Source of the DNA: Oscillospiraceae bacterium
Lineage (GTDB): Bacteria > Bacillota > Clostridia > Oscillospirales > Ruminococcaceae
DNA: 64,000 bases
Assembly: GCA_020054675.1 (NCBI GenBank)
Contig: JAIHAL010000003.1
Span: 248,001-312,000, forward strand
Reading direction: 5' to 3'
The translations under genes were made by a program, and so were the position numbers. Below the pieces are notes generated by a model that ran no database searches, was not told the DNA's origin, and saw only the letters and a program-made list of their open reading frames with translations. This document shows, piece by piece, positions 6,873 to 19,580 of the stretch (position 1 is the stretch's first letter; every line of letters begins with the position of its first letter).

Positions 6873-8264
6873 CTACATTTCCCATCCGGGAAGATATTTT
6901 TTTGTCGCAGAAAGCATTTTGTCCAAAAGCTTTTTGCTGTCGTCAAGACTTGCCGAAACAAGCGGGTCGTTTGCAAATGCCCTGAAAGCAAGGTCTTTAT
7001 CTTTAAACAATGCCGCTTTTAAAACCGTTTCCTGATTGTAAACATGCCTTATAACCAAATTGTGCACATCCCATGGAAGCTCACCCGCTACGGCGGGAAT
7101 GACCTTTCCTCTTGAAAAAAGGGCATTTGTTTCGACAACTGCGCCAAGCGGGATGTTTTTTATTTGTCCGGCATTAGGAATATTTACATTGGTAAACAAA
7201 TCTCCAAGCCCCAAAAGCGCCTTTATTTGGGCAACTCCTTCCTCACCGGTTTCTTTAATGACAAAATTTTCCTCGCCGCTTGATAGTCTTCTGCTTCTTT
7301 CGAGCCTGTTTTTCAGGTCTTCTTTCCGCCATTTGACGGGAGTAAGCTCAAATCCCCATTCATGCACGGTCTGCGGGTCTTTAAGATACCACTTTCCGGG
7401 ACAGAATTCAGCCAGATGCCTGTCGCCTGCCGCAGCAATTATTCCATATCTCTTGAATAAATCAAACTTTACCCTCTGAGAAGATGAAAAATATTTATTC
7501 ATCCAGTTTTCATTGCTTTTTTCGGCAAATCCGGTTTCATAATATTTTTCTGCAAACTTGGCATATATCGGAAAGATGTCGATATCATTATAAAATGCCC
7601 TGTCAATCCATGTAAAATGGTTTATTCCAAGCACGTTTACGGATATTTCCCGCCTGTGAGGCTCTTCTATGCCTAAAATTTCAGAAACCGCCTGCGCCAA
7701 AAGCTTTTGCGTGCCAAAAACCTCGTGGCAGCAGCCAAAAGCCTTGATTTTCGGGAATACCTCGTAAAGCGTCCTGACGCATAGGGTCATTGGATTTGTA
7801 TAGCTTATCACCCATGCTTCGGGGCAGTATCTTTTTATATTCTCGGCTATTTCGGCATACATGGGGATTGTTCTTAATGCTCTTACAAGCCCTCCGGGGC
7901 CGGTGGTATCTCCGACAGATTGATAAATTCCATATTCCTCAGGAGCATGGACATCTGATTCCATCTCATCAAAAGTTCCAGGCATTATGGAAATTACAAC
8001 AAAATCCGCTCCGTTTAAAGCATCAGATATATTTTCAACCGCTTTATACCGCCAGCGGCTTTTTGCATCTGTTCTTTCGGAGAGCCTGTTTCCGATTTTT
8101 TCATTGTCAAGCGCCGCATTAAAATCTATATCGTACAATTTTACCGTTCCGCAAAGGCTTTCCTCTGCCGCAAGGTCGCTCATAAGCCCCCATGCCCAGC
8201 CTCTTGAGCCTCCGCCTATGTACGCAATATTTAAATTATCAACGTGATTTCCGGAATGTTTCAC
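6873..8264 (-). CDS. GH4 family alpha-galacturonidase (LplD-like)
   Basis: A 463-residue NAD- and Mn-dependent GH4 glycosidase. The dinucleotide site is IAYIGGGSRGW (residues 13-23), TNPM sits at 156-159, and the metal-binding motif CHEV at 179-182 is followed by a second metal histidine in GINHFTWI (about 213-220). The CHEV type and the uxaB-uxaA neighbours point to an intracellular alpha-galacturonidase (EC 3.2.1.67) that splits imported oligogalacturonates by the oxidation-elimination mechanism of GH4. The alternative is an alpha-glucosidase of the same subgroup. The start is GTG at 8264, set by AAAGGAG 8 bp upstream. It is first gene of the operon, divergent from an AraC regulator. Confidence 0.8.
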   Translation of the reverse strand: MKHSGNHVDNLNIAYIGGGSRGWAWGLMSDLAAEESLCGTVKLYDIDFNAALDNEKIGNRLSERTDAKSRWRYKAVENISDALNGADFVVISIMPGTFDEMESDVHAPEEYGIYQSVGDTTGPGGLVRALRTIPMYAEIAENIKRYCPEAWVISYTNPMTLCVRTLYEVFPKIKAFGCCHEVFGTQKLLAQAVSEILGIEEPHRREISVNVLGINHFTWIDRAFYNDIDIFPIYAKFAEKYYETGFAEKSNENWMNKYFSSSQRVKFDLFKRYGIIAAAGDRHLAEFCPGKWYLKDPQTVHEWGFELTPVKWRKEDLKNRLERSRRLSSGEENFVIKETGEEGVAQIKALLGLGDLFTNVNIPNAGQIKNIPLGAVVETNALFSRGKVIPAVAGELPWDVHNLVIRHVYNQETVLKAALFKDKDLAFRAFANDPLVSASLDDSKKLLDKMLSATKKYLPGWEM

Positions 8265-8308
8265 TTTAATGCTCCTTTCGCGGTTTTAATTCCGCAATTT
8301 TCAGCTAT

Positions 8309-8403
8309 ATTATAAGACAATTTTAAAATAATTTCATCACATAAATTGCTTTTTTAGAAAAGTTTTCGATATATATTGCTTTTTTAAACGAATGTGGTAA
8401 AAT
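8309..8403. promoter_or_regulatory. Divergent promoter region with tandem AraC-type direct repeats
   Basis: The 12-mer ATTGCTTTTTTA occurs at 8345-8356 and again at 8375-8386, exactly 30 bp apart (about three helical turns), as for tandem AraC half-sites. The second copy covers the likely -35 (TTGCTT, 8376-8381) of the araC-type gene, whose -10 is TAAAAT at 8398-8403. On the minus strand a TATAAT (8314-8309) serves the GH4-uxaBA operon. The layout suggests joint control of both directions. Confidence 0.6.
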
Positions 8404-8422
8404 GTTTTTGAGGTGAATGCAA

Positions 8423-9301
8423 GTGGCAACAAAAAATCCCGACCTTTTGAGCGGCGGGAAGGATTTTGGAATGGAATTTCTTACAAGAAGCAAATCAAAA
8501 AAAGATTCTTTCAGCGTTTTGCCCGGAGAGCATTATCATGACCATTATGAAATTTTTTATCTTTATTCGGGAGAGAGATATTATTTTATACAAAACCAAA
8601 GCTACTATATAAAAAAGGGCGACCTTGTGATTATAGATGCTCTTGATTTGCATAAAACTCTTGACGGGGATACGGAGCAATACCAAAGGTTTTTAATAAA
8701 TTTTAAAAAAAGCTTTTTGCCTGAGCATGGAGAGGAGCTTTTAAATTGCTTTTCATCCGGCACAAACGTAATGCGCCTTAATGAAAGCGAACAGGTTTTT
8801 GTTGAGGAGCTTCTGCTTAAAATGTTTTCCGAACACAACAGCAGGCGATTTGGACGTGAAATTTACTTGAAGTCGCTGCTTTCCGAGCTTTTGGTATTTA
8901 TAAACAGGCTCCCTTTTGAGATTTATCCGAAAGAACTTTTTTCATACAGCCCCATGCATCTTAAAATTTCGGAGGCGGCAAAATACATCCAAAGCCACTG
9001 CGGTGAAATTTTGACGCTTGAAGATGTTGCAAAGAAATTTTATATAAGCCCATATTATTTTTGCCGGAAATTCAAGGAAGTAACAGGCTTTAATTTCAGC
9101 CAGTACTTGAACCTTACAAGAATTAGGCAGGCGCAAAAGCTTTTGCTGCAAACGGATTTAAGCGTATCGGAAATCTCAGGGATGACCGGATTTGAAAGCC
9201 AAACGCATTTCGGCAGGATTTTCAAGGCGACAACGGGGCTTTCTCCGCTGCAATATAGAAAAAGGCATTTGAATCCGGAATTTAATGCAGAAAACATTTG
9301 A
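8423..9301 (+). CDS. AraC family transcriptional regulator
   Basis: A 292-residue regulator. The N-terminal cupin sensor has the HYHDHYEIFYLYSG pattern (residues about 37-50), and the C-terminal double helix-turn-helix covers about 190-285, with TLEDVAKKFYISPYYFCRKF and SVSEISGMTGFESQTHFGR. GTG at 8423 is preferred to the ATG at 8417 because GAGGTG (8410-8415) lies 7 bp before the GTG but only 1 bp before the ATG. It is divergent from the GH4-uxaB-uxaA operon and very likely controls it, sensing a galacturonate-derived sugar (inference). It has its own promoter overlapping one of two tandem repeats, so autoregulation is likely. Confidence 0.88.
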   Translation: MATKNPDLLSGGKDFGMEFLTRSKSKKDSFSVLPGEHYHDHYEIFYLYSGERYYFIQNQSYYIKKGDLVIIDALDLHKTLDGDTEQYQRFLINFKKSFLPEHGEELLNCFSSGTNVMRLNESEQVFVEELLLKMFSEHNSRRFGREIYLKSLLSELLVFINRLPFEIYPKELFSYSPMHLKISEAAKYIQSHCGEILTLEDVAKKFYISPYYFCRKFKEVTGFNFSQYLNLTRIRQAQKLLLQTDLSVSEISGMTGFESQTHFGRIFKATTGLSPLQYRKRHLNPEFNAENI

Positions 9302-9357
9302 TTTTTAATTTAAATTATGATATCTTTTAATTTGAATAATTGTTGAGGAGAATAGGG

Positions 9358-9738
9358 ATGTTCTATACGATAAAGCAGGCGGCTGAAAAAACAGGACTTA
9401 CGGAGCATACAATAAGGTATTACGACAAAGAAGGCCTTTTGCCGCTTTTGGAAAGAAGCCAAGGCGGAATAAGAAAATTTTCCGAGCGTGACATAGAATG
9501 GCTGGGGCTTATATGCTGCCTTAAAAATTCCGGAATGCCGATTGAGGAACTCAGGGAATTCATGCAGCTTTGCCTTAACGGCTCAAAAACTTGCGAAGAG
9601 CGGCGCAAGCTGCTTGTTAAGCACAAGGAGCATATACTTTCCCAAATGGAACAGCTTAAAAAAAGCCTTGATACAGTAAACTACAAAATAGAGCACTATA
9701 AAGAAATAGGGATTTTTCATATAGATTCGGCCGAATAG
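9358..9738 (+). CDS. MerR family transcriptional regulator
   Basis: A 126-residue protein. The winged-helix MerR domain fills residues 1-70 (YTIKQAAEKTGLTEHTIRYY, then a wing with GGIRKFSERDIEWL), followed by a dimerisation helix to about residue 118 rich in Lys, Glu and Leu. The ATG at 9358 follows GAGGAGA by 6 bp; an upstream TTG in frame at 9340 lies before the RBS and is rejected. A CKNSGMPIEELREFMQLC stretch brings cysteines, but there is no classic metal site. The family (AdhR/YyaN-like) answers to electrophile or other stress. It stands alone between the AraC gene and tRNA-Ser, so no target is apparent. Confidence 0.85.
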   Translation: MFYTIKQAAEKTGLTEHTIRYYDKEGLLPLLERSQGGIRKFSERDIEWLGLICCLKNSGMPIEELREFMQLCLNGSKTCEERRKLLVKHKEHILSQMEQLKKSLDTVNYKIEHYKEIGIFHIDSAE

Positions 9739-9759
9739 CAAAAATAAAAATAAAGGTAC

Positions 9760-9788
9760 TTGAAATTTTCTTTGTTTTGTGATATAAT
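9760..9788 (+). promoter_or_regulatory. tRNA-Ser promoter
   Basis: TTGAAA (9760-9765), 17 bp spacer, perfect TATAAT (9783-9788), 22 bp before the tRNA 5' end. Confidence 0.75.
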
Positions 9789-9809
9789 TTTTTAGTCATT
9801 TGAATAAAT

Positions 9810-9898
9810 GGAAGCGTATCGAAGTGGTCATAACGGGCTTGACTCGAAATCAAGTAGTCCGCAAGGGCTCGTGGGTTCGAATCCCACCGCTTCCGCCA
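9810..9898 (+). tRNA. tRNA-Ser (anticodon CGA)
   Basis: The acceptor arms GGAAGCG (9810-9816) and CGCTTCC (9888-9894) pair fully. The anticodon stem CTTGA/TCAAG closes the loop CTCGAAA (anticodon CGA, reading UCG). A long variable arm (TAGTCCGCAAGGGCT) shows a class II serine tRNA. The T arm has GTTCGAATC. The discriminator is G, and the CCA end is encoded at 9896-9898. Confidence 0.95.
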
Positions 9899-9918
9899 AA
9901 CAGGCTTAGCCTGCAAGC

Positions 9919-9955
9919 AAAACGCTCCCCACAGTGTGGGGAGCGTTTTATTTTT
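9919..9955 (+). terminator. Terminator after tRNA-Ser
   Basis: A perfect 13-bp stem (9919-9931 with 9937-9949; core CGCTCCCCA / TGGGGAGCG) with the 5-nt loop CAGTG is followed by ATTTTT. Confidence 0.93.
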
Positions 9956-9960
9956 GTATG

Positions 9961-10408
9961 TTTTTGGGGCTTTAATTTATTTTTTATTAAAACTTATTAA
10001 AACTTATTAAGACTATTGAACATCATAAAAAAATATGACATAATGATTATATGAAAATAATAAAAGGATAATTTGATTAAATTGCCCCGCATATTGTGCG
10101 GAGAAAATGAAATTTGAGCACGAGCAAATTTCATTTTATAAATGCGATATGCAGTCATGGAAAACAGCTGCAAATGAGAAAATTGGCAAAATCCCATGCT
10201 GACGGCATACTGTTTGCGAGCGCATGAACAGATAGAATAAAAGCAGCGTTTTTCAGCGCCTTTTTAAAGCATTGCAAATAAAAAGGCTTTATAAAAATTC
10301 AAGTATAAAGAGTGTGTTTTGACAGCATGAAACTTTAAAAATTCATCACAAACTTGCTTTGACGCGTTTTGCTCAGGACTGCCATAAATAATAAAGGAGG
10401 AATCTTAA
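9961..10408. other. 450-bp gene-free stretch with two adjacent hairpins
   Basis: No convincing gene. It holds an AAAACTTATT direct repeat (about 9988-10010), a short hairpin CCGCA/TGCGG at 10087-10101, and next to it a perfect 13-bp inverted repeat (10104-10116 with 10125-10137, 8-nt loop). The last 15 bp carry a strong RBS, AAAGGAGG (10393-10400), for the next gene. TTGACA at about 10320 has no good -10 at the right distance, so the promoter is not located. Confidence 0.5.
10087..10137. repeat. Paired inverted repeats
   Basis: CCGCA (10087-10091) pairs with TGCGG (10097-10101). Then 10104-10116 pairs perfectly with 10125-10137 around the loop AGCACGAG. There is no T-run, so it does not look like a terminator. 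It may be a dispersed palindromic repeat. Confidence 0.55.
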
Positions 10409-11122
10409 GTGAAACAGCAAATTCTATCTGAAATCAATAGCAAACTGTCTGCATTGGGAATACGGGTGCAGAACGGAAATGGCGCGGACATTTCAATCAG
10501 CACGGAATTTCTTGACGCGGGTTGGAGCACAGGCAATAAAAAAATAAGCTATGAGGCATCAATCTTTGCAAATGAGCAGGAAAATGCAATTTATATGTAT
10601 GAAAAAACAACAGAGATAGGACAAGGAATATCATTTGGAGGGGAAAGCGAATCGTCGTTTCAAAGCGGGACGACTCTATTCCGCAAGGTGAAAAGCATCC
10701 AGTACGGCATTGATGGAAAAGCATACGAATATACTCTTGACTTAGGCGCCATAACAAAGACGGTTAAAGAAACCGCAAAGCGGTATGGGTGGAAGTTTAA
10801 AATTGTACTTAATAAAGATAAGGCAATGTATCCGGCAGGATATGTGCAGTCATTTGCACAGCCTTTTAAACAAGCACAACCGGTTGAACAGTCTTTACAA
10901 ACCAATGGCGGTTTTTGCTCTAATTGCGGGATGCAGCTTGCGCAGGGTGCAAGATTCTGTGATAAATGCGGAAAACCGGTTGGCAATCAGACTTCTCAGA
11001 CAGCCGTTCCGCCTTATGTACCTCATGAACAGCCTCAACCGAATCCAATTAATCCACAGCCGCAATACGGGAACCCGCAGGGAGCATTTTATTCCGCCGC
11101 ACCGAAAAAAACGGCGGAATAG
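10409..11122 (+). CDS. Zinc-ribbon protein, N-terminal part of a frameshifted membrane protein
   Basis: 237 residues from GTG 10409, with RBS AAAGGAGG 8 bp upstream. Residues 1-150 form a globular domain of unknown function (ISYEASIFANEQENAIYMYE, then a LDLGAITKTVKETAKRYGWK segment). A zinc ribbon follows with C170-x2-C173 and C184-x2-C187, then a Pro/Gln-rich linker. The frame then meets TAG at 11120 right after an A7 tract (11105-11111). In the -1 frame the sequence continues without break into a Gly/Leu transmembrane helix and the next ORF. So this and 11176-12303 are probably one protein of about 630 residues, cut by loss of one A or joined by slippage. Function unknown; I recall similar ribbon-TM proteins in Clostridia. 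Confidence 0.75.
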   Translation: MKQQILSEINSKLSALGIRVQNGNGADISISTEFLDAGWSTGNKKISYEASIFANEQENAIYMYEKTTEIGQGISFGGESESSFQSGTTLFRKVKSIQYGIDGKAYEYTLDLGAITKTVKETAKRYGWKFKIVLNKDKAMYPAGYVQSFAQPFKQAQPVEQSLQTNGGFCSNCGMQLAQGARFCDKCGKPVGNQTSQTAVPPYVPHEQPQPNPINPQPQYGNPQGAFYSAAPKKTAE

Positions 11123-12303
11123 GCGGCATCTTCGGACTTATAGGATTTATACTTTTAGGAATTTTACTTGTCTTAATGCTGGTGGCGGCTCAAGGAACTG
11201 CAGCCGGATGGATTGTTTCTCTCATCATTTTCTCGGCGGCTTTCTTTATTCAGCGTAAATTGAAGAAAAAAGGCTGTTTGATTAACTTTATCCTGTGGAT
11301 AATAACCGGGTTCCTTTTGCTTATAGTTTTAACGATGTGTACGACGGGCGAGCTTAATTATTCCACTGCAAGCTTGAAAAACGCACATATGACCACTGCG
11401 ATGGATGCAAGCGGCAAGCCTGTTGATGCAGTGCGCTCGTATTCGCCGAATGCTCCGGAGCTTGTCGCCGTTGCCGAATTGCATAATGCTGCGGCCAATA
11501 CGAAAGTAAGGTTTGTTTGGAAATATATCACAGGCGATATGCTCATTAAGGAGTACAGCTTGGACAGCGGAAACAGCGGCTCCGATATTTATATTTTCAG
11601 CAACCTTACCAATGACAGTCCATGGCCTGAGGGGAAATATAGAGTTGAAATGTATATTGAAGACAGAAAAACGCCGGATGCGGAAGTTGATTTTGAAGTG
11701 ACGGCAGTTGCTGATAGTCATGCTGCAGATGCAGCTTCCTCACAGTCTTTTTCTGCTGTATTGCCCTATGAAAAAAGTTTTATGCTGAATGACGGAAAAA
11801 GCATTGGAAAATTCAGATTGTTTGTTTCTGACGGAACAGGGCTTTACCAAGGATATAACGGCCAAATTATCTGCGAATTTTATGTAAAGTTTGATACAAG
11901 CTCATTGCCTGCTGATTTCAAAATGAAGCCGGAGCAAGCCGTTGAAAATAATGAGATGGGGCTTCCGGCATTAGACGGTTTGATAATGGCGGTTTGCTCC
12001 GATAAAGAAGCGTATCATACAACCGGATTGAGTTATGCGGAAGCAATATATAATAACGGGGACATAAAGCCATTTTTAGAAACTGAGGGCGCAACGGCAA
12101 ATATCAGCGCTCAAAGCATTAAGGAGTTGGCTGCAAAATATCCTAAAATGCAGGTTTTAAGATACAATCAGAACGAAGTCGGAATGACAAAAGAAGGGGA
12201 TGCTTGGATTACTCATGCTGAAAAGGCGTTTGGACTGCATCCGCCTGTTGCAGAAGGAAATATACCGTGGGATGAAATCTTAAAAGATTTAGGCCTGCAA
12301 TAA
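11110..12303 (+). CDS. Membrane-anchored C-terminal part of the zinc-ribbon protein (-1 frame)
   Basis: The open frame from 11110 (no start codon until ATG 11176) reads NGGIGGIFGLIGFILLGILL, a membrane helix that would be cut if translation began at 11176. A second helix follows at about 11210-11330 (CLINFILWIITGFLLLIVL, ending in a cysteine). The rest, some 320 residues, looks like an extracytoplasmic beta-rich domain (NTKVRFVWKYITGDMLIKEY, PWPEGKYRVEMYIEDRK) plus a C-terminal region of no known type. ATG 11176 has no Shine-Dalgarno sequence at the right distance, which supports a fusion with the upstream zinc-ribbon part. If translated separately it would start at 11176 and give 375 residues. 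Function unknown. Confidence 0.7.
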   Translation, partial: NGGIGGIFGLIGFILLGILLVLMLVAAQGTAAGWIVSLIIFSAAFFIQRKLKKKGCLINFILWIITGFLLLIVLTMCTTGELNYSTASLKNAHMTTAMDASGKPVDAVRSYSPNAPELVAVAELHNAAANTKVRFVWKYITGDMLIKEYSLDSGNSGSDIYIFSNLTNDSPWPEGKYRVEMYIEDRKTPDAEVDFEVTAVADSHAADAASSQSFSAVLPYEKSFMLNDGKSIGKFRLFVSDGTGLYQGYNGQIICEFYVKFDTSSLPADFKMKPEQAVENNEMGLPALDGLIMAVCSDKEAYHTTGLSYAEAIYNNGDIKPFLETEGATANISAQSIKELAAKYPKMQVLRYNQNEVGMTKEGDAWITHAEKAFGLHPPVAEGNIPWDEILKDLGLQ

Positions 12304-12406
12304 AAAATGAAATGTTTAAAGCATGACGTTTATTTGAAAAATGGCATATATGCGTATGGTGCCTTTCAGTTGAATTGGGGATGGCAAATAAAAATAAGAA
12401 GGGGAT

Positions 12407-13378
12407 ATGTTTTTGATGAATATGATTTACGAAGATGTTGATTTGGATTTTTATGATTTGGAAAAAGAGCCCCCCTTGCCTGTATATGAGAATAGTGAAA
12501 TTTATGGGGACAGCACGCAAACTGAGAAAATTGTGGTTGAATCGGATTCGTTAAGGACAACATCAGACGCATTGGCAGCAGGTGGATTTGAATTTCAGAA
12601 ATTGCTTACATATGCTTTGGAATATTTAAAAAGAAACTGGGCTTTTTTGTCTGCAATATTTATTCTTTGGCTGATGCTTGGCTCGAGAACAAGCTCTCTA
12701 TTTATTTATAGGATTCCTATTATAGGATTTATATATCAATTTATTACAAGCAGTCCGATAAAAGAAATTTTGATATTTTTCACAGCTGCGTACAACGGGC
12801 CAGTGGGTTTTTTGGACAGCGGGCTTTCTCCTTATACGTTTCTTGTAGCGTTAACAGGAAAATCTGCATATCTGCTTGCCATGACCGGTGTTTTGATTCC
12901 ATCGGTTAAAGCGCTTGTTAAAAGCAAAGATACTGAAATATTGACTTATAAAGAGAATTTTCAAAGGTTGACACAAAACCTTAAAGCAATTTCTAAGAAT
13001 TTGTATTTGTTGGGATTTGCTTTAGCCGGTGCGGGCGGAGCCCTTGTAATTTCCAATTTGCTTACCCGAAACGGGAAAATGGATAAGACATTTGTATTAT
13101 TGCTTCTTTCATTTACTTTATTTAAAGGATTGGCAGGTGCGCTTCCTTCTGCTTTAGATTTCATTGCACGGCGTCTTATGGCTTTGTATACAAGACTTTT
13201 GCCGGGAGGAATTGAAAATGGTGCTGTTCATTATGAAAATATAAGAACAGGAGCAACATTAGGATTTATATTGGCTTTAATAGTGGGTTCTGCGGGTGAA
13301 AAATCAGGATATATTTTAGGAGTTGTCTTGATTGTTGCAGGAGCAGTGCTTTCTATAATTAAAAAGGAGAAAATTTGA
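12407..13378 (+). CDS. Multi-pass membrane protein of unknown function
   Basis: 323 residues. An acidic cytoplasmic-looking N-terminus (residues 1-70, rich in Asp/Glu) is followed by about six hydrophobic segments, among them WAFLSAIFILWLMLG (about 78-92), AYLLAMTGVLIPSV, LYLLGFALAGAGGALVISNL, FVLLLLSFTLFKGLAGAL and YILGVVLIVAGAVLSII at the end. A GGGG-type RBS (AAGAAGGGG) precedes ATG 12407. I recognise no family. Its stop shares one base with the start of the radical SAM gene (TGATG), so the two are coupled, and the gene is probably part of the same functional unit as the radical SAM and HExxH genes. Confidence 0.75.
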   Translation: MFLMNMIYEDVDLDFYDLEKEPPLPVYENSEIYGDSTQTEKIVVESDSLRTTSDALAAGGFEFQKLLTYALEYLKRNWAFLSAIFILWLMLGSRTSSLFIYRIPIIGFIYQFITSSPIKEILIFFTAAYNGPVGFLDSGLSPYTFLVALTGKSAYLLAMTGVLIPSVKALVKSKDTEILTYKENFQRLTQNLKAISKNLYLLGFALAGAGGALVISNLLTRNGKMDKTFVLLLLSFTLFKGLAGALPSALDFIARRLMALYTRLLPGGIENGAVHYENIRTGATLGFILALIVGSAGEKSGYILGVVLIVAGAVLSIIKKEKI

Positions 13379-14457
13379 TGGCCATTAGAAGGTTTACCGA
13401 CAGAGGGGGCTTTATTTCAATTTTTAATGATGAAAACGGCGATTATATGCGTACAGGTATTCTTGATGCCAACGGGATTGATACGGGAGAAGAACCTTTT
13501 TGTTCCGAATTTCCACAGCTTCTTGATATAGGAATAATGGGGCACTGCATACACGGTCTTAACGGTCTGTGTTCTTCCTGCGGAGTAGAATGCTATCAGA
13601 GCGGAGCATACGAGAACCAGCCTAATATGATTTTCGAATACTTTAAAAATATTATTTCGCAGTGTGAGGGAAGGACTTTTCAGGTTGCATTGGGCGGCAG
13701 GGGAGACCCTGAAATGCATGAAAATTTTGAGGATATTTTAGCCTGCTGCCGTCATTTTGGAATTGTACCAAATATAACCACATCAGGCTATGGCCTGACC
13801 CGGAGCCTTTCATCTGCAATTGCCAAGTACTGCGGCGCGGCGGCAGTGAGCTGGTATAAGACGAGTTATACATACAGAGCAATTGATATGCTTCTTGAAA
13901 AGGGCGTCACAACAAATATTCACTTTGTATTGGGAAAAAACAGCATTTCGGAGGCTGTTGAGCTTCTTGAGCAAAACAAAATACCACAAGGGGTTTCGCG
14001 TATAATATTTTTGCTGCATAAACCTGTGGGGCAGGGCAGCAGAGAACGGGTTCTGTCAATTGAAGACCCGCTGACGAGGGATTTTTTTCAGTTGATTTCA
14101 AAGCCTGAAATAGTTGAAAAAATCGGATTTGACTCCTGTCTTGTGCCGGGAATTGCTGCCCATTGTCCACAAATCCCTCACGAATCCTATGATGCCTGCG
14201 AGGCCGGACGATTTTCGGCATACATTGGACCTGACCTCAAAATGACACCATGCAGCTTTGATAAATCGGATAAATTTGCTGAAAGCCTCTATGAAAAATC
14301 AATTTCGGATATTTGGAACGGGGATAAGTTTTACGGTTATAGGGAAGCCTTCAAAAAAAGATGCCAAGGCTGTGAATTTGTCAGCCGGTGCCTTGGCGGA
14401 TGTCCGATAGAGGGCGAAATAAATCTTTGCGGCAAATACAATCAGAAATATAAATAA
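13378..14457 (+). CDS. Radical SAM/SPASM protein with atypical cluster spacing
   Basis: 359 residues from ATG 13378, set by AAGGAG 8 bp upstream (the TTG at 13375 is rejected). The N-terminal cluster motif is C57-x7-C65-x2-C68-x3-C72-Y rather than CxxxCxxC, in the context DIGIMGHCIHGLNGLC. QVALGGRGDPEMH follows as the usual GGEP-like SAM-binding strand, and later a TIM-barrel pattern. The C-terminal part (about 264-352) has SPASM-type cysteines: CEAGRFSAYIG, TPCSFD, then CQGCEFVSRCLGGCP and a last C, enough for auxiliary 4Fe-4S clusters. SPASM enzymes usually modify peptides or proteins; the likely partner is the HExxH ORF 18 bp downstream (inference). Substrate unknown. Confidence 0.82.
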   Translation: MAIRRFTDRGGFISIFNDENGDYMRTGILDANGIDTGEEPFCSEFPQLLDIGIMGHCIHGLNGLCSSCGVECYQSGAYENQPNMIFEYFKNIISQCEGRTFQVALGGRGDPEMHENFEDILACCRHFGIVPNITTSGYGLTRSLSSAIAKYCGAAAVSWYKTSYTYRAIDMLLEKGVTTNIHFVLGKNSISEAVELLEQNKIPQGVSRIIFLLHKPVGQGSRERVLSIEDPLTRDFFQLISKPEIVEKIGFDSCLVPGIAAHCPQIPHESYDACEAGRFSAYIGPDLKMTPCSFDKSDKFAESLYEKSISDIWNGDKFYGYREAFKKRCQGCEFVSRCLGGCPIEGEINLCGKYNQKYK

Positions 14458-14474
14458 GGATGGTTGAATGATAG

Positions 14475-16661
14475 ATGAAAGTTAGAAAAGGATTTGTAAC
14501 AAATTAAAGTTCAACAAATTTTGGCGCCATGCTGGTTACTTCCCTGGCCGGAATTTGTGCGGCATCATTAATTTCACCCTTTGAATATGATGAAAATGCT
14601 AAAGATAAGTCCTATGTTAAATTGGTAGTGGAAGCGCCTGCAAGCAGAGTGCTCCGCCCCGGACAGGTTGTTTCCATATCGGCGCAAATATTAAAAGCAA
14701 GAATAGTTGAAGGAAAACTTGAAGATACTGTTTCAGTAGTCGGCGGAGCGGAAATTAAATGCACATCCGGACAGGAAATCATTGTAATGGACCCGGCAAA
14801 AGCATCGGATGGCTCTTTAAGTTTTTCTGTTATTGATGACTTGGATGCTTTGATAAAGTTTACAAAAACCATTTCATTTTCTGTTACGGGATACTGTGAT
14901 GGAAAAACTTTGAAAGCTGATGTAATGTTTACCGTTCCGGCATTTTCTGTTTCTCCTGTCAGCGGAACTTTTGTTGTCGGGAAAGGAACTGAGGAAGTCA
15001 TCAAGCTGCAATCCAATTTCAAATCGGATTACAGGTATGAATTTTCTGATGAGAGAATGCTTGATTCCTTGCCGCTTAATACAGAAGATTACTGCGAAGA
15101 AATAAAGTTAATTGAAGATTTTGAGGATGCTGATAAAAGATTCGATATGTTTACCTGCAAAATTGTCAAGGATTATAAACTGGAAGCGCCAATTGATGGT
15201 TTTGCAATGAAGTCAAATTATCGTGCCGTATTTTTACGGGAATGCATACTTTTGCCGAAGAGCACCAAAATCCCCATTGTCATTAAATGCTATAAAGATG
15301 AACAAAGTGATAAAAGGACACAGGAAGCATACTTGTTTATTGTAAAAGTATTGAAATATGACCCCAAAACTAAAAATCTGGCAACTGATATTGAACTCAC
15401 AAATAATCTTAGTTTTTCTTTTGAGCCTGTTTTAGATTCTAATAATGGCAGGTTTACTCTTGATAAGGCTGAAAAGGCGGTTAATGATGCCAAAATTACA
15501 GCAGAGCTTTCTCCAAAAGATGGTATTGCCACATCACAAAGGCCTTATGCAATTTACAGGATATATGCAGGCGCTTTTTGCGAAGCTGAAACCGATAAAA
15601 TTAATCTGAAAATGAAGGTGTCCTGCAATGACAGTGAAATAGAAGAAATTGAAGTCAAGGCTCAATTAAGGCCCAAAATAAACTTAAAGGGCTTGATAAC
15701 TCAATTTATTGAATATCCGGCAGGAACTTATGTCGCTACGGTTATGAGTCTTGGAAATGTTGATGCTTATATTGAAGCCCTTGATAAGCTTGATGATATA
15801 AAGATAGTCGGGACAGGAAATCCAAAATATGATGTTAATACCAATATAATGAGCCTTAGGGATATCCCTGAATCAATAGAAGAATTTGCGGAAATTCAAA
15901 CTATTCACCACGAGCTGTGCCATAAAATTGAACAAATAAAAGGCGATAATTTTTACAGGGGCGGTTCATGGGGAGAGCGCCACAGTTATTTTATACAGTA
16001 CCTTACTGATGCGGCGAAGATATTGGCGGACATCGAGCGGGGAAAGGTTTCGGATATCAAAGGTTCTTTGGGCGAGGCCATATATAAGCTTTATATGGTT
16101 TGCAATAATGCCGACAATATCGAATATCCTCCAAACCAAGGTGAAATAAACGATTGGTTTGGGGTACGCTCCCTTACGCCGCATCAGATTTTTGACAAAT
16201 ATCTGAATTTTTCTGTTTATTGCAGAAATTCATCATTGGATGAAGCGGTAATAAAACAGGTTGAAAAAAATGCAGGGTCAGAGTATTTCCCGGGCGACAT
16301 AAAAGGCTATTGGAAGTTTAACGGGGGGCTGTTTGACCAGGGAGAATGGATTATTTTATGGCAATACGGGAATTTGCAGAAAATTAATGTAAAATGTACA
16401 GGGTATACTTTAAAAGAATTAAGCAGAAAATGGCTTGGAGGAAACAGGCTGGCTTTTGAAGTAAGATATGAGGTTGTTCGCTTGTCGGATAATGATGAAG
16501 ATGAGCTTATTGCAATTTTTGATGCCGGTACATTTGACCCCGGCAGCTGGGAGTATCCGAAGGTGGATAAATTCTCCGTCAAATGGAAGGCTGGAAGAAC
16601 TTTAAGTGATTGTATTCTCGGAGCGCATATGGATAAGGTTGTTGAGCTTGTTAGGAAATAA
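14475..16661 (+). pseudogene. HExxH metalloprotein with N-terminal MKVRKGFVTN segment interrupted by TAA
   Basis: From ATG 14475 the frame reads MKVRKGFVTN, then TAA (14505-14507), then SSTNFGAMLVTSLAG and on without stop to 16661. The resumed frame is the same, and TCA (Ser) to TAA is a single base change, so the segment looks like a conserved N-terminus with a nonsense codon. The next ATG (14529) has no RBS. The remaining 710 residues hold extended beta-rich domains (to about residue 400) and a zincin-like core: H461-E-L-C-H465, then E483 in SWGERHSYF as a possible third ligand. The tail (about 585-705) looks like a lipocalin- or beta-sandwich-like domain. Metalloprotease activity is inferred. 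It may be translated by read-through or from 14529, or be dead. Confidence 0.7.
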
Positions 16662-16671
16662 GGAATAAAAA

Positions 16672-16720
16672 ATCCCCTTATTTGCTGCTCATTTTATGCG
16701 GCGAATAAGGGGATGTTTAT
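16672..16720. terminator. Bidirectional terminator between convergent genes
   Basis: ATCCCCTTATT (16672-16682) pairs with AATAAGGGGAT (16704-16714), 21-nt loop, with A-rich sequence on one side and GTTTAT on the other. Confidence 0.8.
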
Positions 16721-16730
16721 AATCAAAATT

Positions 16731-17654
16731 TCACTCCCTGTCGGTTTTGTAAGAAAGCCTTAGCTTCATGGGCCTGCCGTAATCGCCAAAACCGGTGCCG
16801 AAAAGAGTAAGTCCTCCGCAGTGAGGAGTTTCCTCCGGCACGGAAAATCTGAATATTATCGGCGTCTGATGGTTTATGTTCAGGTCCTTTACGGTCACAT
16901 CGGAAATCTTGCTGCTGCCATCTATAAAGGTGCCCTTTTCGTTGACCGTAAGAGTTTTAAGCAGACCGAACTGATTCAAGCTGTTTCCCCACCAGTCGGG
17001 AGTGAATCTGCCCCGCCTGTTTCCGAAATCCCCCGGGCTTATCCAAAAGCCAAGGGGGATTTCGTTTATGGAAAAATGTATATCGGATGGGTAATCATCG
17101 CAAACTCCCGGGCATTCGGAGGCAATTTCAAAGGAAAGCCTGAATTCTGAAAGCTCCTCGCGCGGTTTTAAGCGATTTGGGAGGGTGTATTCGATAAATC
17201 CGCTGGCGAACCAAAGAATTGAGGCGTTGTATCTTTGGGGAAAAGAAAAGTATTTTGGGTCGTCAAGCTCTCCGATTATTTCGGTGACGGTTGCTATTCC
17301 ACAAGTGGGAGAAATCTTGTAGTTTGTAAAAAAACCTATTTCAATGTCATCACAATAGCAAAGCTCTTCATTTTCGGATGGAGCTAAATTTACCGCAAGC
17401 ATATCATGAATGGGTCTGCATATTTTCATGGAGCCTCTTTTTCCGGAAGTCGTGCGGATTTCTATAAGTCCTGCCTCTTCAAGCTGTTTTATGTGCATGG
17501 AAATGGCGCTGTTTGTAAGCCCGAGCTTTTGGGCAAGGTCATTCAGGTTCATATCTTTATTTTGGTATAGCAGTTCAAGTATTTGAATTCTTGCGGGAGC
17601 ACTGAGTGCCTTAAAGACTTCAATGGCATTCGCCATATTTTCAAAATGCAGCAT
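16731..17654 (-). CDS. ArsR-type regulator with large C-terminal sensor domain
   Basis: 307 residues. Residues 5-90 form a winged helix of the ArsR type (VFKALSAPARIQILELLYQN, LTNSAISMHIKQLEEAGLIE and a wing with SGKRGSMKIC). Residues about 100-305 form a beta-rich domain with CYCDDIEIGFFTNYKI and repeated aromatic strands, resembling a carbohydrate- or ligand-binding sandwich. Such regulators often sit beside glycosidase genes. Here it is divergent from the GH51 gene, with a 10-bp palindrome at 17797-17821 as a likely operator. The AGGAGC-type RBS precedes ATG 17654. It probably represses the arabinofuranosidase until an arabinoside is bound (inference). Confidence 0.82.
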   Translation of the reverse strand: MLHFENMANAIEVFKALSAPARIQILELLYQNKDMNLNDLAQKLGLTNSAISMHIKQLEEAGLIEIRTTSGKRGSMKICRPIHDMLAVNLAPSENEELCYCDDIEIGFFTNYKISPTCGIATVTEIIGELDDPKYFSFPQRYNASILWFASGFIEYTLPNRLKPREELSEFRLSFEIASECPGVCDDYPSDIHFSINEIPLGFWISPGDFGNRRGRFTPDWWGNSLNQFGLLKTLTVNEKGTFIDGSSKISDVTVKDLNINHQTPIIFRFSVPEETPHCGGLTLFGTGFGDYGRPMKLRLSYKTDRE

Positions 17655-17685
17655 AAAAGCTCCTTTAAAAGTTTATTATAATTTA

Positions 17686-17713
17686 ATTATATCCTATTTT
17701 TTAATAAAGTCAA
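17686..17713 (-). promoter_or_regulatory. Promoter of the ArsR-type regulator
   Basis: On the minus strand TTGACT (17713-17708), 16-bp spacer, perfect TATAAT (17691-17686), about 30 bp before the start codon. Confidence 0.7.
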
Positions 17714-17759
17714 TGCTTAATTACTAAATAAAAATATGTATATTTAGCTGATTTTTCAC

Positions 17760-17821
17760 TTGACAAGGGGATAATGCTGTGCTAAACTACAATTAGTTTA
17801 ATAATATGTTGTATTATTAAA
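17760..17821 (+). promoter_or_regulatory. Promoter and palindromic operator of the GH51 gene
   Basis: TTGACA (17760-17765), 17 bp, TAAACT (17783-17788). Just after the expected start site lies a perfect inverted repeat, TTTAATAATA (17797-17806) and TATTATTAAA (17812-17821), with a 5-nt centre. It has the AT-rich dyad form seen for ArsR-family operators, and a repressor bound there would block transcription. Confidence 0.65.
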
Positions 17822-17854
17822 TAAATCACTTAAATAATCAAAAGGAGTATTTGT

Positions 17855-19327
17855 ATGAGCAAGCTGGTCATCAATCCCCACAATAAAAAAGACCGTATAA
17901 GCAAGAACATATACGGCCATTTTTCCGAGCACCTTGGAAGATGCATTTATCAGGGAATTTATGTCGGAGAAAATTCGCCAATTCCAAATACAAACGGCAT
18001 GAGGAACGACGTTGTCAATGCGCTTAAAGAAATCAAGGTTCCTGTACTCCGCTGGCCGGGCGGATGCTTTGCGGACGAATATCATTGGAAGGATGGAATC
18101 GGACCAAAGGAAAAGCGCAAAAAAATGATAAATACACACTGGGGCGGAGTTGTTGAGGACAACAGCTTTGGCACACATGAATTTATGGAACTTTGCGAGC
18201 AAATCGGCTGCGAGCCTTACATAAACGGCAACGTGGGAAGCGGCACTGTTCAGGAAATGTCCGAATGGGTGGAATATATGACTTTTGACGGAGTGTCGCC
18301 GATGGCTCAGCTCAGGGCTGAAAACGGAAGAAAAGCTCCTTGGAAGGTAAAATATTTTGGCATTGGAAACGAAAACTGGGGATGCGGCGGAAATATGCGC
18401 CCGGAATTCTATGCTGATTTGTATAGGCGTTTCCAGACTTATGTAAGAAATTACGGCGACAATAGGGTTTATAAGATTGCCTGCGGCGCAAATTCGGAAG
18501 ATTACAACTGGACGGATGTGGTTATGAAGATTGCCGCTCCGTTTATGGATGCAATTTCGCTGCATTACTATACAATTACCCATACATGGCAGAATAAGGG
18601 CAGCGCTACCGGATTTAACGAGCATGAATGGTATCTTTGCTTGAACAAGACGCTCAAAATGGACGAAATAGTAACAAGACATATTGAGATTATGGATAAA
18701 TATGACCCTGAGCATAGGATTGCACTTATAGTTGATGAATGGGGAACATGGTTTGACGTTGAGCCGGGCACAAATCCGGGCTTCCTCTATCAGCAGAACA
18801 CAATGCGCGATGCCCTTGTTGCGGCAATAAACCTCAACATCTTCAATAAGCATTGCGACAGGGTGAGAATGGCAAATATTGCCCAGATGGTCAACGTGCT
18901 GCAATCGGTAATCCTCACTGAGGGCGAAAAGATGGTTCTTACTCCGACATATCATGTGTTCAATATGTACAAGGCGCATCAGGATGCAACATTGATTGAC
19001 AGCTACATTGAAACCAAGGAAATTGCACATGAGGATGTTAAGATACCAAATCTTCATGAATCCTGTTCAATTGACGAAAATGGCAGGATTACGGTTACCG
19101 TTGCGAACCTTTCAACAAAGGACAGCTATGATATTGACGGCATAATTGTTGATACAAAGATAAACAAGGTAAGCGGAACAATCCTTACGAACGAAATGGG
19201 CGCGCACAACACATTTGACAAGCCGGATGTTGTAAAGCCTGCTCAGTTTAAGGATTTCAAGGTTACTGAAAAGGGAATTGACTTTAAAATTCCGCCTTGC
19301 AGCGTAATTTCGCTTACGATTGAATAA
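17855..19327 (+). CDS. abfA: Alpha-L-arabinofuranosidase, GH51
   Basis: 490 residues, near the usual 500 of Bacillus AbfA. It removes terminal arabinofuranosyl groups from arabinan and arabinoxylan oligosaccharides (EC 3.2.1.55). The acid/base is Glu173 in [11 protein letters not shown] and the nucleophile Glu295 in [25 protein letters not shown] (65-79) is the family signature. A beta-sandwich completes the C-terminus. No signal peptide, so it acts in the cytoplasm on imported oligosaccharides. AAAGGAG precedes ATG 17855. It lies upstream of the araBAD genes and has its own promoter and palindromic operator facing the ArsR-type regulator. Confidence 0.96.
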
Positions 19328-19328
19328 A

Positions 19329-19580
19329 ATGGAATCCTATTGCAGAAAATGCCTTTTAAAGGACATCTCAAAGGAAGAATATTTTAAAAACGTCTATGAG
19401 TATATAAAAAGCCTTGACAAGGAAATAAAAACCCCCGACGGCGAGTATGAAAGAAGGCTTGGGATTTGCAAGGAATGCGACAAGCTTGTAAACGGAATGT
19501 GCGCCGTATGCGGATGTTTTGTCGAGGTCAGGGCGGCAAAGCGTATAAACTACTGCCCTGACGTCAATAAAAAATGGTAA
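19329..19580 (+). CDS. Small cysteine-rich protein, DUF6171-like
   Basis: 83 residues with eight cysteines set as pairs: YCRKCLLKDIS at the start, ICKECDKL in the middle, MCAVCGCFVEVRAAKR and a final YCPD...KW. The arrangement looks like one or two zinc-binding knuckles. It matches my memory of DUF6171, common in Clostridia and of unknown function. ATG 19329 comes 1 bp after the GH51 stop and has no clear RBS, so translation is coupled; the in-frame TTG at 19320 is less likely. A strong terminator follows, so GH51 and this gene form a two-gene unit. Confidence 0.75.
   Translation: MESYCRKCLLKDISKEEYFKNVYEYIKSLDKEIKTPDGEYERRLGICKECDKLVNGMCAVCGCFVEVRAAKRINYCPDVNKKW

What the first reader, a model, noticed from the sequence alone, without database searches (positions are those of the whole stretch)
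10409..16661. Unexplained radical SAM / HExxH cassette with membrane partners
Seen: four loci on one strand, with the membrane gene and the radical SAM gene sharing a base (TGATG) and the HExxH frame starting 18 bp after the latter. Known: SPASM enzymes usually modify peptides or proteins, and HExxH proteins are often proteases. Inferred: the radical SAM enzyme matures the N-terminus or core of the HExxH protein, or both handle a small peptide; the membrane and zinc-ribbon proteins would anchor or export it. I know no described system with this set. This is my best candidate for an undescribed system.
Basis: partly seen in the sequence, partly recalled or inferred. Interest (0 to 1): 0.72.

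Follow-up and report, generated by a model that had tools for sequence, protein, structure and literature searches.

The report
Radical SAM enzyme and N-terminal tag
A family of radical enzymes travels with proteins that all start with the same short tag, in anaerobic bacteria, large phages and defence-like islands, so the enzyme probably modifies that tag; in this genome the tag is interrupted by a stop codon.

Summary
The cassette is real, but what is constant is a tag. The radical SAM/SPASM enzyme (13378-14457) belongs to an unnamed family whose genomes also encode proteins beginning MK[IV][RK]xDFVTNSSSxS[FY]. Enzyme and tag occur in the same 10 of 398 phylum genomes, the same 6 of 391 class genomes and the same 7 of 72,556 plasmids; 44 of 47 viral contigs with the enzyme carry tagged proteins, up to eight in a row. 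Tagged bodies are diverse: HExxH and coiled-coil proteins, small phage proteins, partners of Avs-like STAND NTPases. Best reading: the enzyme modifies the tag; site and chemistry are unknown. The window clade has an enlarged cluster motif, CX7CX6C. The membrane/enzyme/tagged-HExxH trio recurs, tag intact, in G628 (34/56/44% identity); an untagged HExxH relative sits in the same cassette of G646. In the window an in-frame TAA interrupts the tag, so this copy may be decaying or misassembled. Against: G551 has the enzyme without a tag, G425 a tag without the enzyme.

The parts
12407..13378 (+). membrane protein, constant upstream partner of the enzyme within this clade
   Evidence: 34% identical to the gene in the same place in G628; hhalign to the membrane genes of L018-L021: probability 91.8, E 7.2e-7, over 111 C-terminal columns
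13378..14457 (+). radical SAM/SPASM enzyme, proposed tag-modifying enzyme
   Evidence: SPASM above cut-off; model pLDDT 92.7, best solved match SuiB Z 25.8
13546..13593 (+). enlarged cysteine loop CX7CX6C in place of CX3CX2C
   Evidence: alignment of 51 enzymes; the radical SAM domain itself is not hit by Pfam
14197..14430 (+). SPASM cysteine region (C275 to C352)
   Evidence: seven cysteines here kept in 92-100% of 51 sequences, as is C255 before it
14475..14522 (+). N-terminal tag of the HExxH protein, interrupted by an in-frame TAA at 14505-14507
   Evidence: profile match E 4.0e-6 with one stop inside; reads MKVRKGFVTN, stop, SSTNF
14529..16661 (+). body of the HExxH protein, open for 710 codons; HELCH at 15909-15923
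   Evidence: 44% identical over its whole length to a protein of G628 whose tag is intact; 29% over 626 aligned residues to an untagged protein of G646
10409..12303 (+). zinc-ribbon / membrane gene, apparently split by a frame change near 11105; probably not part of the system
   Evidence: frame open from 11053 on the far side; no relative of either ORF beside the other enzymes by BLAST

Best explanation
A radical SAM/SPASM enzyme recognises the first about 16 residues of client proteins, MK[IV][RK]xDFVTNSSSxS[FY], and makes a radical-type covalent change in that tag, most likely in the NSSSxS stretch or at the aromatic residues on either side. The clients stay whole proteins with different bodies, so the tag acts as a portable maturation signal and not as the leader of one natural product. 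In the window's clade a membrane protein gene lies directly upstream and the client is an HExxH protein (window, G628) or a coiled-coil protein. Shown: co-occurrence, neighbourhood, conservation of the tag, SPASM peptide-maturase fold. Inferred: that the tag is the substrate, where the change falls, its chemistry and its purpose. In the window the tag is interrupted, so this copy is probably decaying, or the assembly is wrong there.
For: Co-occurrence: same 10 of 398 genomes; same 6 of 391, five of them new; same 7 of 72,556 plasmid records; 44 of 47 viral contigs. Phage RB16 has both though they lie 19-24 kb apart. One enzyme with up to eight tagged proteins in a row. In 13 tagged phage proteins the tag is 86% identical and the rest 25%, and residues 1-11 are predicted disordered in a model that is otherwise confident. 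Tag and enzyme distances correlate over 46 loci (r 0.586, 0 of 5000 permutations as high). Best fold matches are mostly peptide or protein modifiers: SuiB, SkfB, PqqE, ChlB with its precursor, anSME, CteB.
Against: No chemistry was observed. G551 (98% complete) has the enzyme but no tag at E 0.01 or better; G425 has a tag but no enzyme was found in the family search; so in the window's own family of 148 sampled genomes only the window's genome has both, and its tag is broken. L067, L095 and L106 have no tag in their records, all three fragments. Profile A1 was made from loci found through the enzyme, so presence in the first sample is partly by construction; tagged proteins in A6 were collected through the tag. 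The match lists of the phages agree in counts by genus, not checked record by record, and are one lineage. A fold match shows no function; viperin, which acts on nucleotides, also scores Z 19.1.
Confidence: 0.78

Rival explanations
1. The tag is a targeting, assembly or expression signal of the same mobile gene set, and the enzyme acts on something else such as a nucleotide, RNA or small molecule.
For: Viperin-type enzymes are among the fold matches (Z 19.1), and weak pVip matches exist. Several loci lie near defence-like genes.
Against: The enzyme has a SPASM domain and matches peptide maturases better. The tag follows the enzyme across contexts whose other genes differ, and in RB16 also without adjacency.
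Confidence: 0.14
2. The tagged ORFs are precursors of a small peptide product: the tag or a piece of it is cut off and released, as in ordinary RiPP pathways.
For: The enzyme's fold resembles RiPP maturases. In L024-L026 and L159 the tagged protein and enzyme stand near ABC transporter genes.
Against: Bodies run from about 90 to over 700 residues and one family folds confidently behind the tag; in the phage arrays up to eight different bodies share one enzyme.
Confidence: 0.06
3. For the window copy only: the stop is real and old, the HExxH protein starts at 14529 and works without the tag, like the untagged relative in G646.
For: The body is open for 710 codons and 44% identical to the G628 protein. 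An untagged relative exists in G646 with a signal-like start.
Against: No ribosome-binding site is visible before 14529, and the sequence around the stop still reads as the tag, as if the break were recent or an assembly fault.
Confidence: 0.2

Closest known systems
Radical SAM/SPASM peptide maturases with solved structures: SuiB, SkfB, PqqE, ChlB, CteB
   Same: SPASM domain, overall fold (Z 20.7-25.8), genetically linked substrate with a recognition stretch (substrates recalled, except that ChlB and SuiB entries name their precursors)
   Different: Below the cut-off of every named NCBIfam maturase listed for the window enzyme; CX7CX6C loop; the recognition stretch sits on many unrelated whole proteins
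Anaerobic sulfatase-maturating enzyme (anSME)
   Same: SPASM fold (Z 20.8); acts on a short motif in a whole protein (recalled)
   Different: Motif is elsewhere and different (recalled); the tag here is at the very N-terminus and the clients are not one enzyme family
Radical SAM-SPASM with FxSxx peptides in conflict systems (Kaur et al. 2020, PMC7159879; passages and section 21 read)
   Same: A radical SAM-SPASM enzyme and a candidate peptide in prokaryotic conflict operons
   Different: Motif is named FxSxx and tied to VMAP systems there; no FVTNSSS tag was found in the passages read
PHROG 7293 and PHROG 7397
   Same: Hold the RB16 enzyme and one RB16 tagged protein; the window enzyme hits 7293 at E 9.6e-22
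   Different: Both are listed as unknown function; I saw no link between them stated
Avs (AVAST) antiphage systems
   Same: In ten relatives of the system, not in the window, a STAND protein matching Avs2 models lies upstream; in L022 and L158 also an Avs1a-like MBL gene
   Different: These STAND proteins have 618-979 residues against about 1,400-1,600 in the Avs2 models, and the tagged protein and enzyme are added

Membership tests
Radical SAM/SPASM proteins | SPASM domain | tested here: met
   PF13186 32.3 bits against 21.5; TIGR04085 31.6 against 27
Radical SAM/SPASM proteins | radical SAM core fold | tested here: met
   model pLDDT 92.7; SuiB Z 25.8 over 323 residues, rmsd 3.7
Radical SAM/SPASM proteins | CX3CX2C cluster motif | tested here: not met
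   CX7CX6C in the window; CX3CX2C in homologous clades, with intermediate spacings. The motif is the usual one, and exceptions are known (recalled; Dph2 in the title of PMC11048331, listing)
Named RiPP maturase families of NCBIfam | score above the family's cut-off | tested here: not met
   none of the equivalogs listed reaches its cut-off for the window enzyme or for five relatives (best 25 shown for two of them)
Named RiPP maturase families | observed covalent change in a linked peptide or protein | not testable with these tools
   needs mass spectrometry
Viperins (pVip) | full-length match to the viperin models | tested here: not met
   window enzyme: residues 88-160 only, E 0.0036; relatives match N-terminal parts only and lie below NF038283's cut-off
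Avs systems | STAND NTPase next to the cassette in the window | tested here: inconclusive
   no such ORF in the ORF list for 8000-19500 by reading; window neighbours other than the cassette and the HExxH protein were not scanned against PADLOC
HExxH metalloproteases | HExxH with a further conserved acidic or histidine site | tested here: met
   HELxHxIE and ERHSYF kept in window, G628 and G646 proteins; activity not testable, no Pfam peptidase family hit

The most novel reading that the evidence does not exclude
A portable N-terminal tag and its own radical SAM writer form a protein-modification code that large phages and bacterial conflict islands share. Phages place the tag on arrays of small proteins; hosts place it on a small partner of short Avs-like STAND NTPases and on membrane-linked HExxH or coiled-coil effectors. 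The modified tag would be what partner proteins recognise in phage-host conflict, and the writer tolerates an enlarged cluster loop.
Probability: 0.3. Interest if true: 0.93.

Novelty: new variant of a known kind. Interest (0 to 1): 0.8.

Why it matters
If the tag is modified, one radical SAM enzyme would act on an N-terminal code carried by many unrelated proteins, in laboratory coliphages as well as in anaerobes. That would suggest a function for two unknown phage protein families (PHROG 7293 and 7397), add a component to Avs-like defence operons and widen the cysteine spacings thought able to hold a radical SAM cluster. It can be tested directly in RB43/RB16-type phages.

Tried and rejected
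Zinc-ribbon gene as a constant partner: rejected; in 26 genomes the matches outside G000 covered mainly the zinc-ribbon end, and no relative lay beside the other enzymes. HExxH protein as the constant partner: rejected for the family, kept as a recurring partner; 61 relatives gave only G000, viral contigs none, but G628 and G646 have it. Family matches for the HExxH body: none useful. Genomic island mark at tRNA-Ser: no second copy of its 3' end in the window. A 26-residue tag query in the phage collection: no match, perhaps because the filter hides serine runs. E. coli genomes, DNA search: no match. One scan of genome contigs gave five distant matches only. The class of G188 holds only ten genomes, 2 of 10 with both enzyme and tag.

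Absence in print rests on ten searches of PMC open papers and on no other source. Searches listed 15 of 19 and 15 of 410 papers; of those I saw the listings only. The papers listed were seen as listings only. Passages were read in PMC3468402 (its radical SAM gene is QueE), PMC7159879 (and section 21), PMC10853773, PMC12799240 (no radical SAM), PMC12390700 (a giant Aeromonas phage with eight radical SAM genes; whether they belong to this family was not tested) and PMC7824862 (no radical SAM).

Rows dropped or altered: L093 (intein) was left out of the tree, L094 was cut to its last 355 residues and L156 entered with a late start; L108 and L109 were left out of the structure alignment. In one search the loop label printed for L099 is a chance regex match; its loop reads CX3CX2C. 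The tag collection used a motif that itself requires N at tag position 10 and S at position 12.
Full report
WHAT IS THERE. On the + strand the window holds a zinc-ribbon ORF (10409-11122), an ORF that seems to continue it in another frame (11176-12303), a membrane protein (12407-13378), a radical SAM/SPASM enzyme (13378-14457) and a long HExxH ORF (14529-16661). The enzyme passes the SPASM cut-offs of Pfam and NCBIfam and no other family cut-off. The HExxH ORF has no match in Pfam, NCBIfam, PADLOC or the PDB sequences at the limits used. Upstream in its frame, from ATG 14475, the sequence reads MKVRKGFVTN, stop, SSTNFGAM.

THE TAG. Relatives of the enzyme (9 further genomes among 398 of the phylum at E 1e-20 or better; G551 in the own family) were read with their surroundings. 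In all nine phylum genomes a gene next to the enzyme begins [MVL]KI or KV, then [RK]xD[FY][VI]TNSSS[TEA]SF. A profile of these starts (A1) matched the same 10 of 398 genomes at E 4.0e-6 or better, each next to the enzyme; the next genome scored 0.0046. Presence there is partly by construction, since A1 comes from these genomes; absence in the other 388 is not. A second sample, 391 genomes of the class, searched with wider profiles, gave the tag in 6 (E 1e-5 or better) and the enzyme in 6 (E 1e-30 or better), the same six; one is the window's genome, so five are new. In five of the six the two genes are neighbours; in G605 one gene lies between them.

EXCEPTIONS. In the own family the enzyme was found in 2 of 148 genomes (G000, G551) and the tag in 2 of 148 (G000, G425; the two draws are taken to be the same, which I could not list). 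G551 has no tag at E 0.01 or better. G425 has the tag on a short ORF of a small contig. Over the three samples 16 genomes hold the enzyme, 16 the tag and 15 both.

PLASMIDS AND PHAGES. Of 72,556 plasmid records 7 hold the enzyme and 7 the tagged protein of L108, the same accessions; four Agrobacterium records give identical scores and are probably near copies. Of 50,697 phage records 169 hold the enzyme and 174 and 175 hold the two tagged proteins of phage RB16. Counts by genus agree closely (Klebsiella 108 against 114 and 115; a Vibrio phage only in the enzyme list), but records were not matched one by one, and this is one phage lineage. In RB16 the enzyme RB16p156 lies 19-24 kb from the tagged genes RB16p106 and RB16p111, so the link is not adjacency alone. 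A scan of viral contigs gave 47 with the enzyme. A motif search found tagged ORFs in the fetched stretch of 41; record-wide profile search added L089, L101 and L104 (L101 also read), 44 of 47. The record of L067 ends about 0.5 kb after the enzyme; L095 and L106 are 38 and 58 kb fragments. Several contigs are near copies (61 enzymes, 51 distinct, bacterial ones included). L072 has eight tagged ORFs in a row.

TAG AGAINST BODY. 145 tagged ORFs, 109 distinct, came from 51 of 56 loci examined. Besides the N and S that the search motif demands, S11 and S13 of the tag never vary among them, position 7 is F or Y, position 16 is F or Y, and position 15 is S in 102 of 109. The bodies fall into 23 groups by BLAST at E below 0.01. 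In 13 phage proteins that I grouped by their ends, two or three of them doubtful members, the first 16 columns are 86% identical on average (lowest pair 75%) and the rest 25% (lowest 10%); all were collected through the tag. A model of that group has mean pLDDT 89.7, but residues 1-11 lie under 50. A stretch that is at once the most conserved and unfolded suggests a recognition or modification site. Tag and enzyme distances correlate over 46 loci (r 0.586; 0 of 5000 permutations as high); shared descent makes this weaker than it looks.

THE ENZYME. A model from 36 sequences has pLDDT 92.7. Best solved matches: SuiB Z 25.8, SkfB 23.1, PqqE 21.1, ChlB with its precursor 20.9, anSME 20.8, CteB 20.7; viperin 19.1. 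The cluster loop is CX7CX6C in the window clade and most phage members near it, CX3CX2C in the defence-like and ABC-linked clades and three phage members, with CX5CX3C, CX7CX3C, CX7CX8C and, in RB16, CX7CX2C between. C255 and seven SPASM cysteines are kept in 92-100% of 51 sequences. Two phage enzymes carry homing elements: an intein in L093 and a GIY-YIG/NUMOD3 stretch in L094.

GENE CONTEXTS. On a tree of 54 enzymes four of the six labelled context groups are single clades; the coiled-coil group needs 2 changes and the phages 4. (a) Membrane gene, enzyme, tagged protein: window and G628 with HExxH bodies; L018, L019, L020 and L156 with coiled-coil bodies, followed by a gene that is weakly EspG-like in L018 and L020 (below cut-off) and not in L019 or L156. 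(b) MBL gene, protease and STAND, small protein, tagged protein, enzyme: L022, L023, L158. (c) SMEK/REase-STAND, small protein, tagged protein, enzyme: L096, L097, L103, L105, L108-L110. PADLOC's Avs2 models hit the STAND protein of all ten loci of (b) and (c). (d) Tagged protein and enzyme near ABC transporter genes, by reading: L024-L026, L159. (e) Phage arrays. (f) L155.

THE HExxH PROTEIN. In G628 the membrane gene, enzyme and HExxH protein are 34%, 56% and 44% identical to the window's, and the tag is intact. In G646 an HExxH relative of 963 residues (29% over 626 aligned residues) lies directly before the membrane gene, has a signal-like start and no tag, while the tagged protein there is the coiled-coil one. 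HELxHxIE and ERHSYF are kept in all three.

HOW IT LIKELY WORKS. The enzyme binds the N-terminal tag of its client, cleaves SAM and abstracts hydrogen from a residue in or next to NSSSxS[FY]. What forms is open: a crosslink as in SuiB products, an oxidised residue as in anSME, or an epimer as in EpeE (reactions recalled). I would guess a crosslink or an oxidation, with no evidence between them. The purpose probably differs by context; the Avs-like operons and the phage arrays point to phage-host conflict, which was not tested.

THE WINDOW COPY. The stop in the tag, no visible ribosome-binding site at 14529 and the frame change near 11105 suggest decay or assembly faults. The enzyme is intact. 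Intact copies of the tag exist elsewhere.

NOVELTY. No NCBIfam or Pfam family above its cut-off covers the tagged proteins scanned; PHROG 7293 and 7397 are of unknown function. Ten searches of open PMC papers found no account of the tag (listed under Tried and rejected). Kaur et al. 2020 predict radical SAM-SPASM enzymes with FxSxx peptides in other conflict systems, a precedent in kind. I file this as a new variant of a known kind: radical SAM/SPASM enzyme with a genetically linked substrate.

Noticed in passing
window 11053-12303: The ORF after the zinc-ribbon gene is open upstream to 11053 in its frame; a run of seven A near 11105 and transmembrane-like sequence right after it suggest one gene split by a frame change, or slippage.
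   Followed up: partly
window 9810-9898: A tRNA-Ser (CGA) gene lies about 0.5 kb before the cassette; no second copy of its 3' end was found in the window.
   Followed up: partly
L093:3429-5789; L094:1458-3317: Two phage copies of the enzyme carry homing elements: an intein with a LAGLIDADG-like domain, and a GIY-YIG/NUMOD3 stretch in the same ORF.
   Followed up: partly
L022, L023, L096, L097, L103, L105, L108-L110, L158: STAND proteins shorter than the Avs2 models (618-979 residues, one of them probably a fragment), each followed by a gene for about 120-140 residues, a tagged protein and the enzyme; the small genes might replace the missing sensor part.
   Followed up: partly
L024-L026, L159: Tagged proteins with cysteine-rich ends beside the enzyme and ABC transporter genes that look like iron or cobalamin types by eye.
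   Followed up: no
L138 and L163 (phage RB16, 62000-72500): The two tagged RB16 genes flank a gene annotated as vWA-like (RB16p109); RB16p106 also matches PHROG 132, head-tail adaptor, at E 3.3e-10.
   Followed up: no
L156:9614-10852: A tyrosine integrase lies just after the G646 cassette, so the cassette may be mobile.
   Followed up: no
L021 and L027 (G286): Two enzyme pieces on two contigs overlap by about 80 residues with different identity to the query, so G286 may have two copies.
   Followed up: no
PMC12390700 (passage): A giant Aeromonas phage is reported with eight radical SAM genes in its structural cluster; a good place to look for this family.
   Followed up: no
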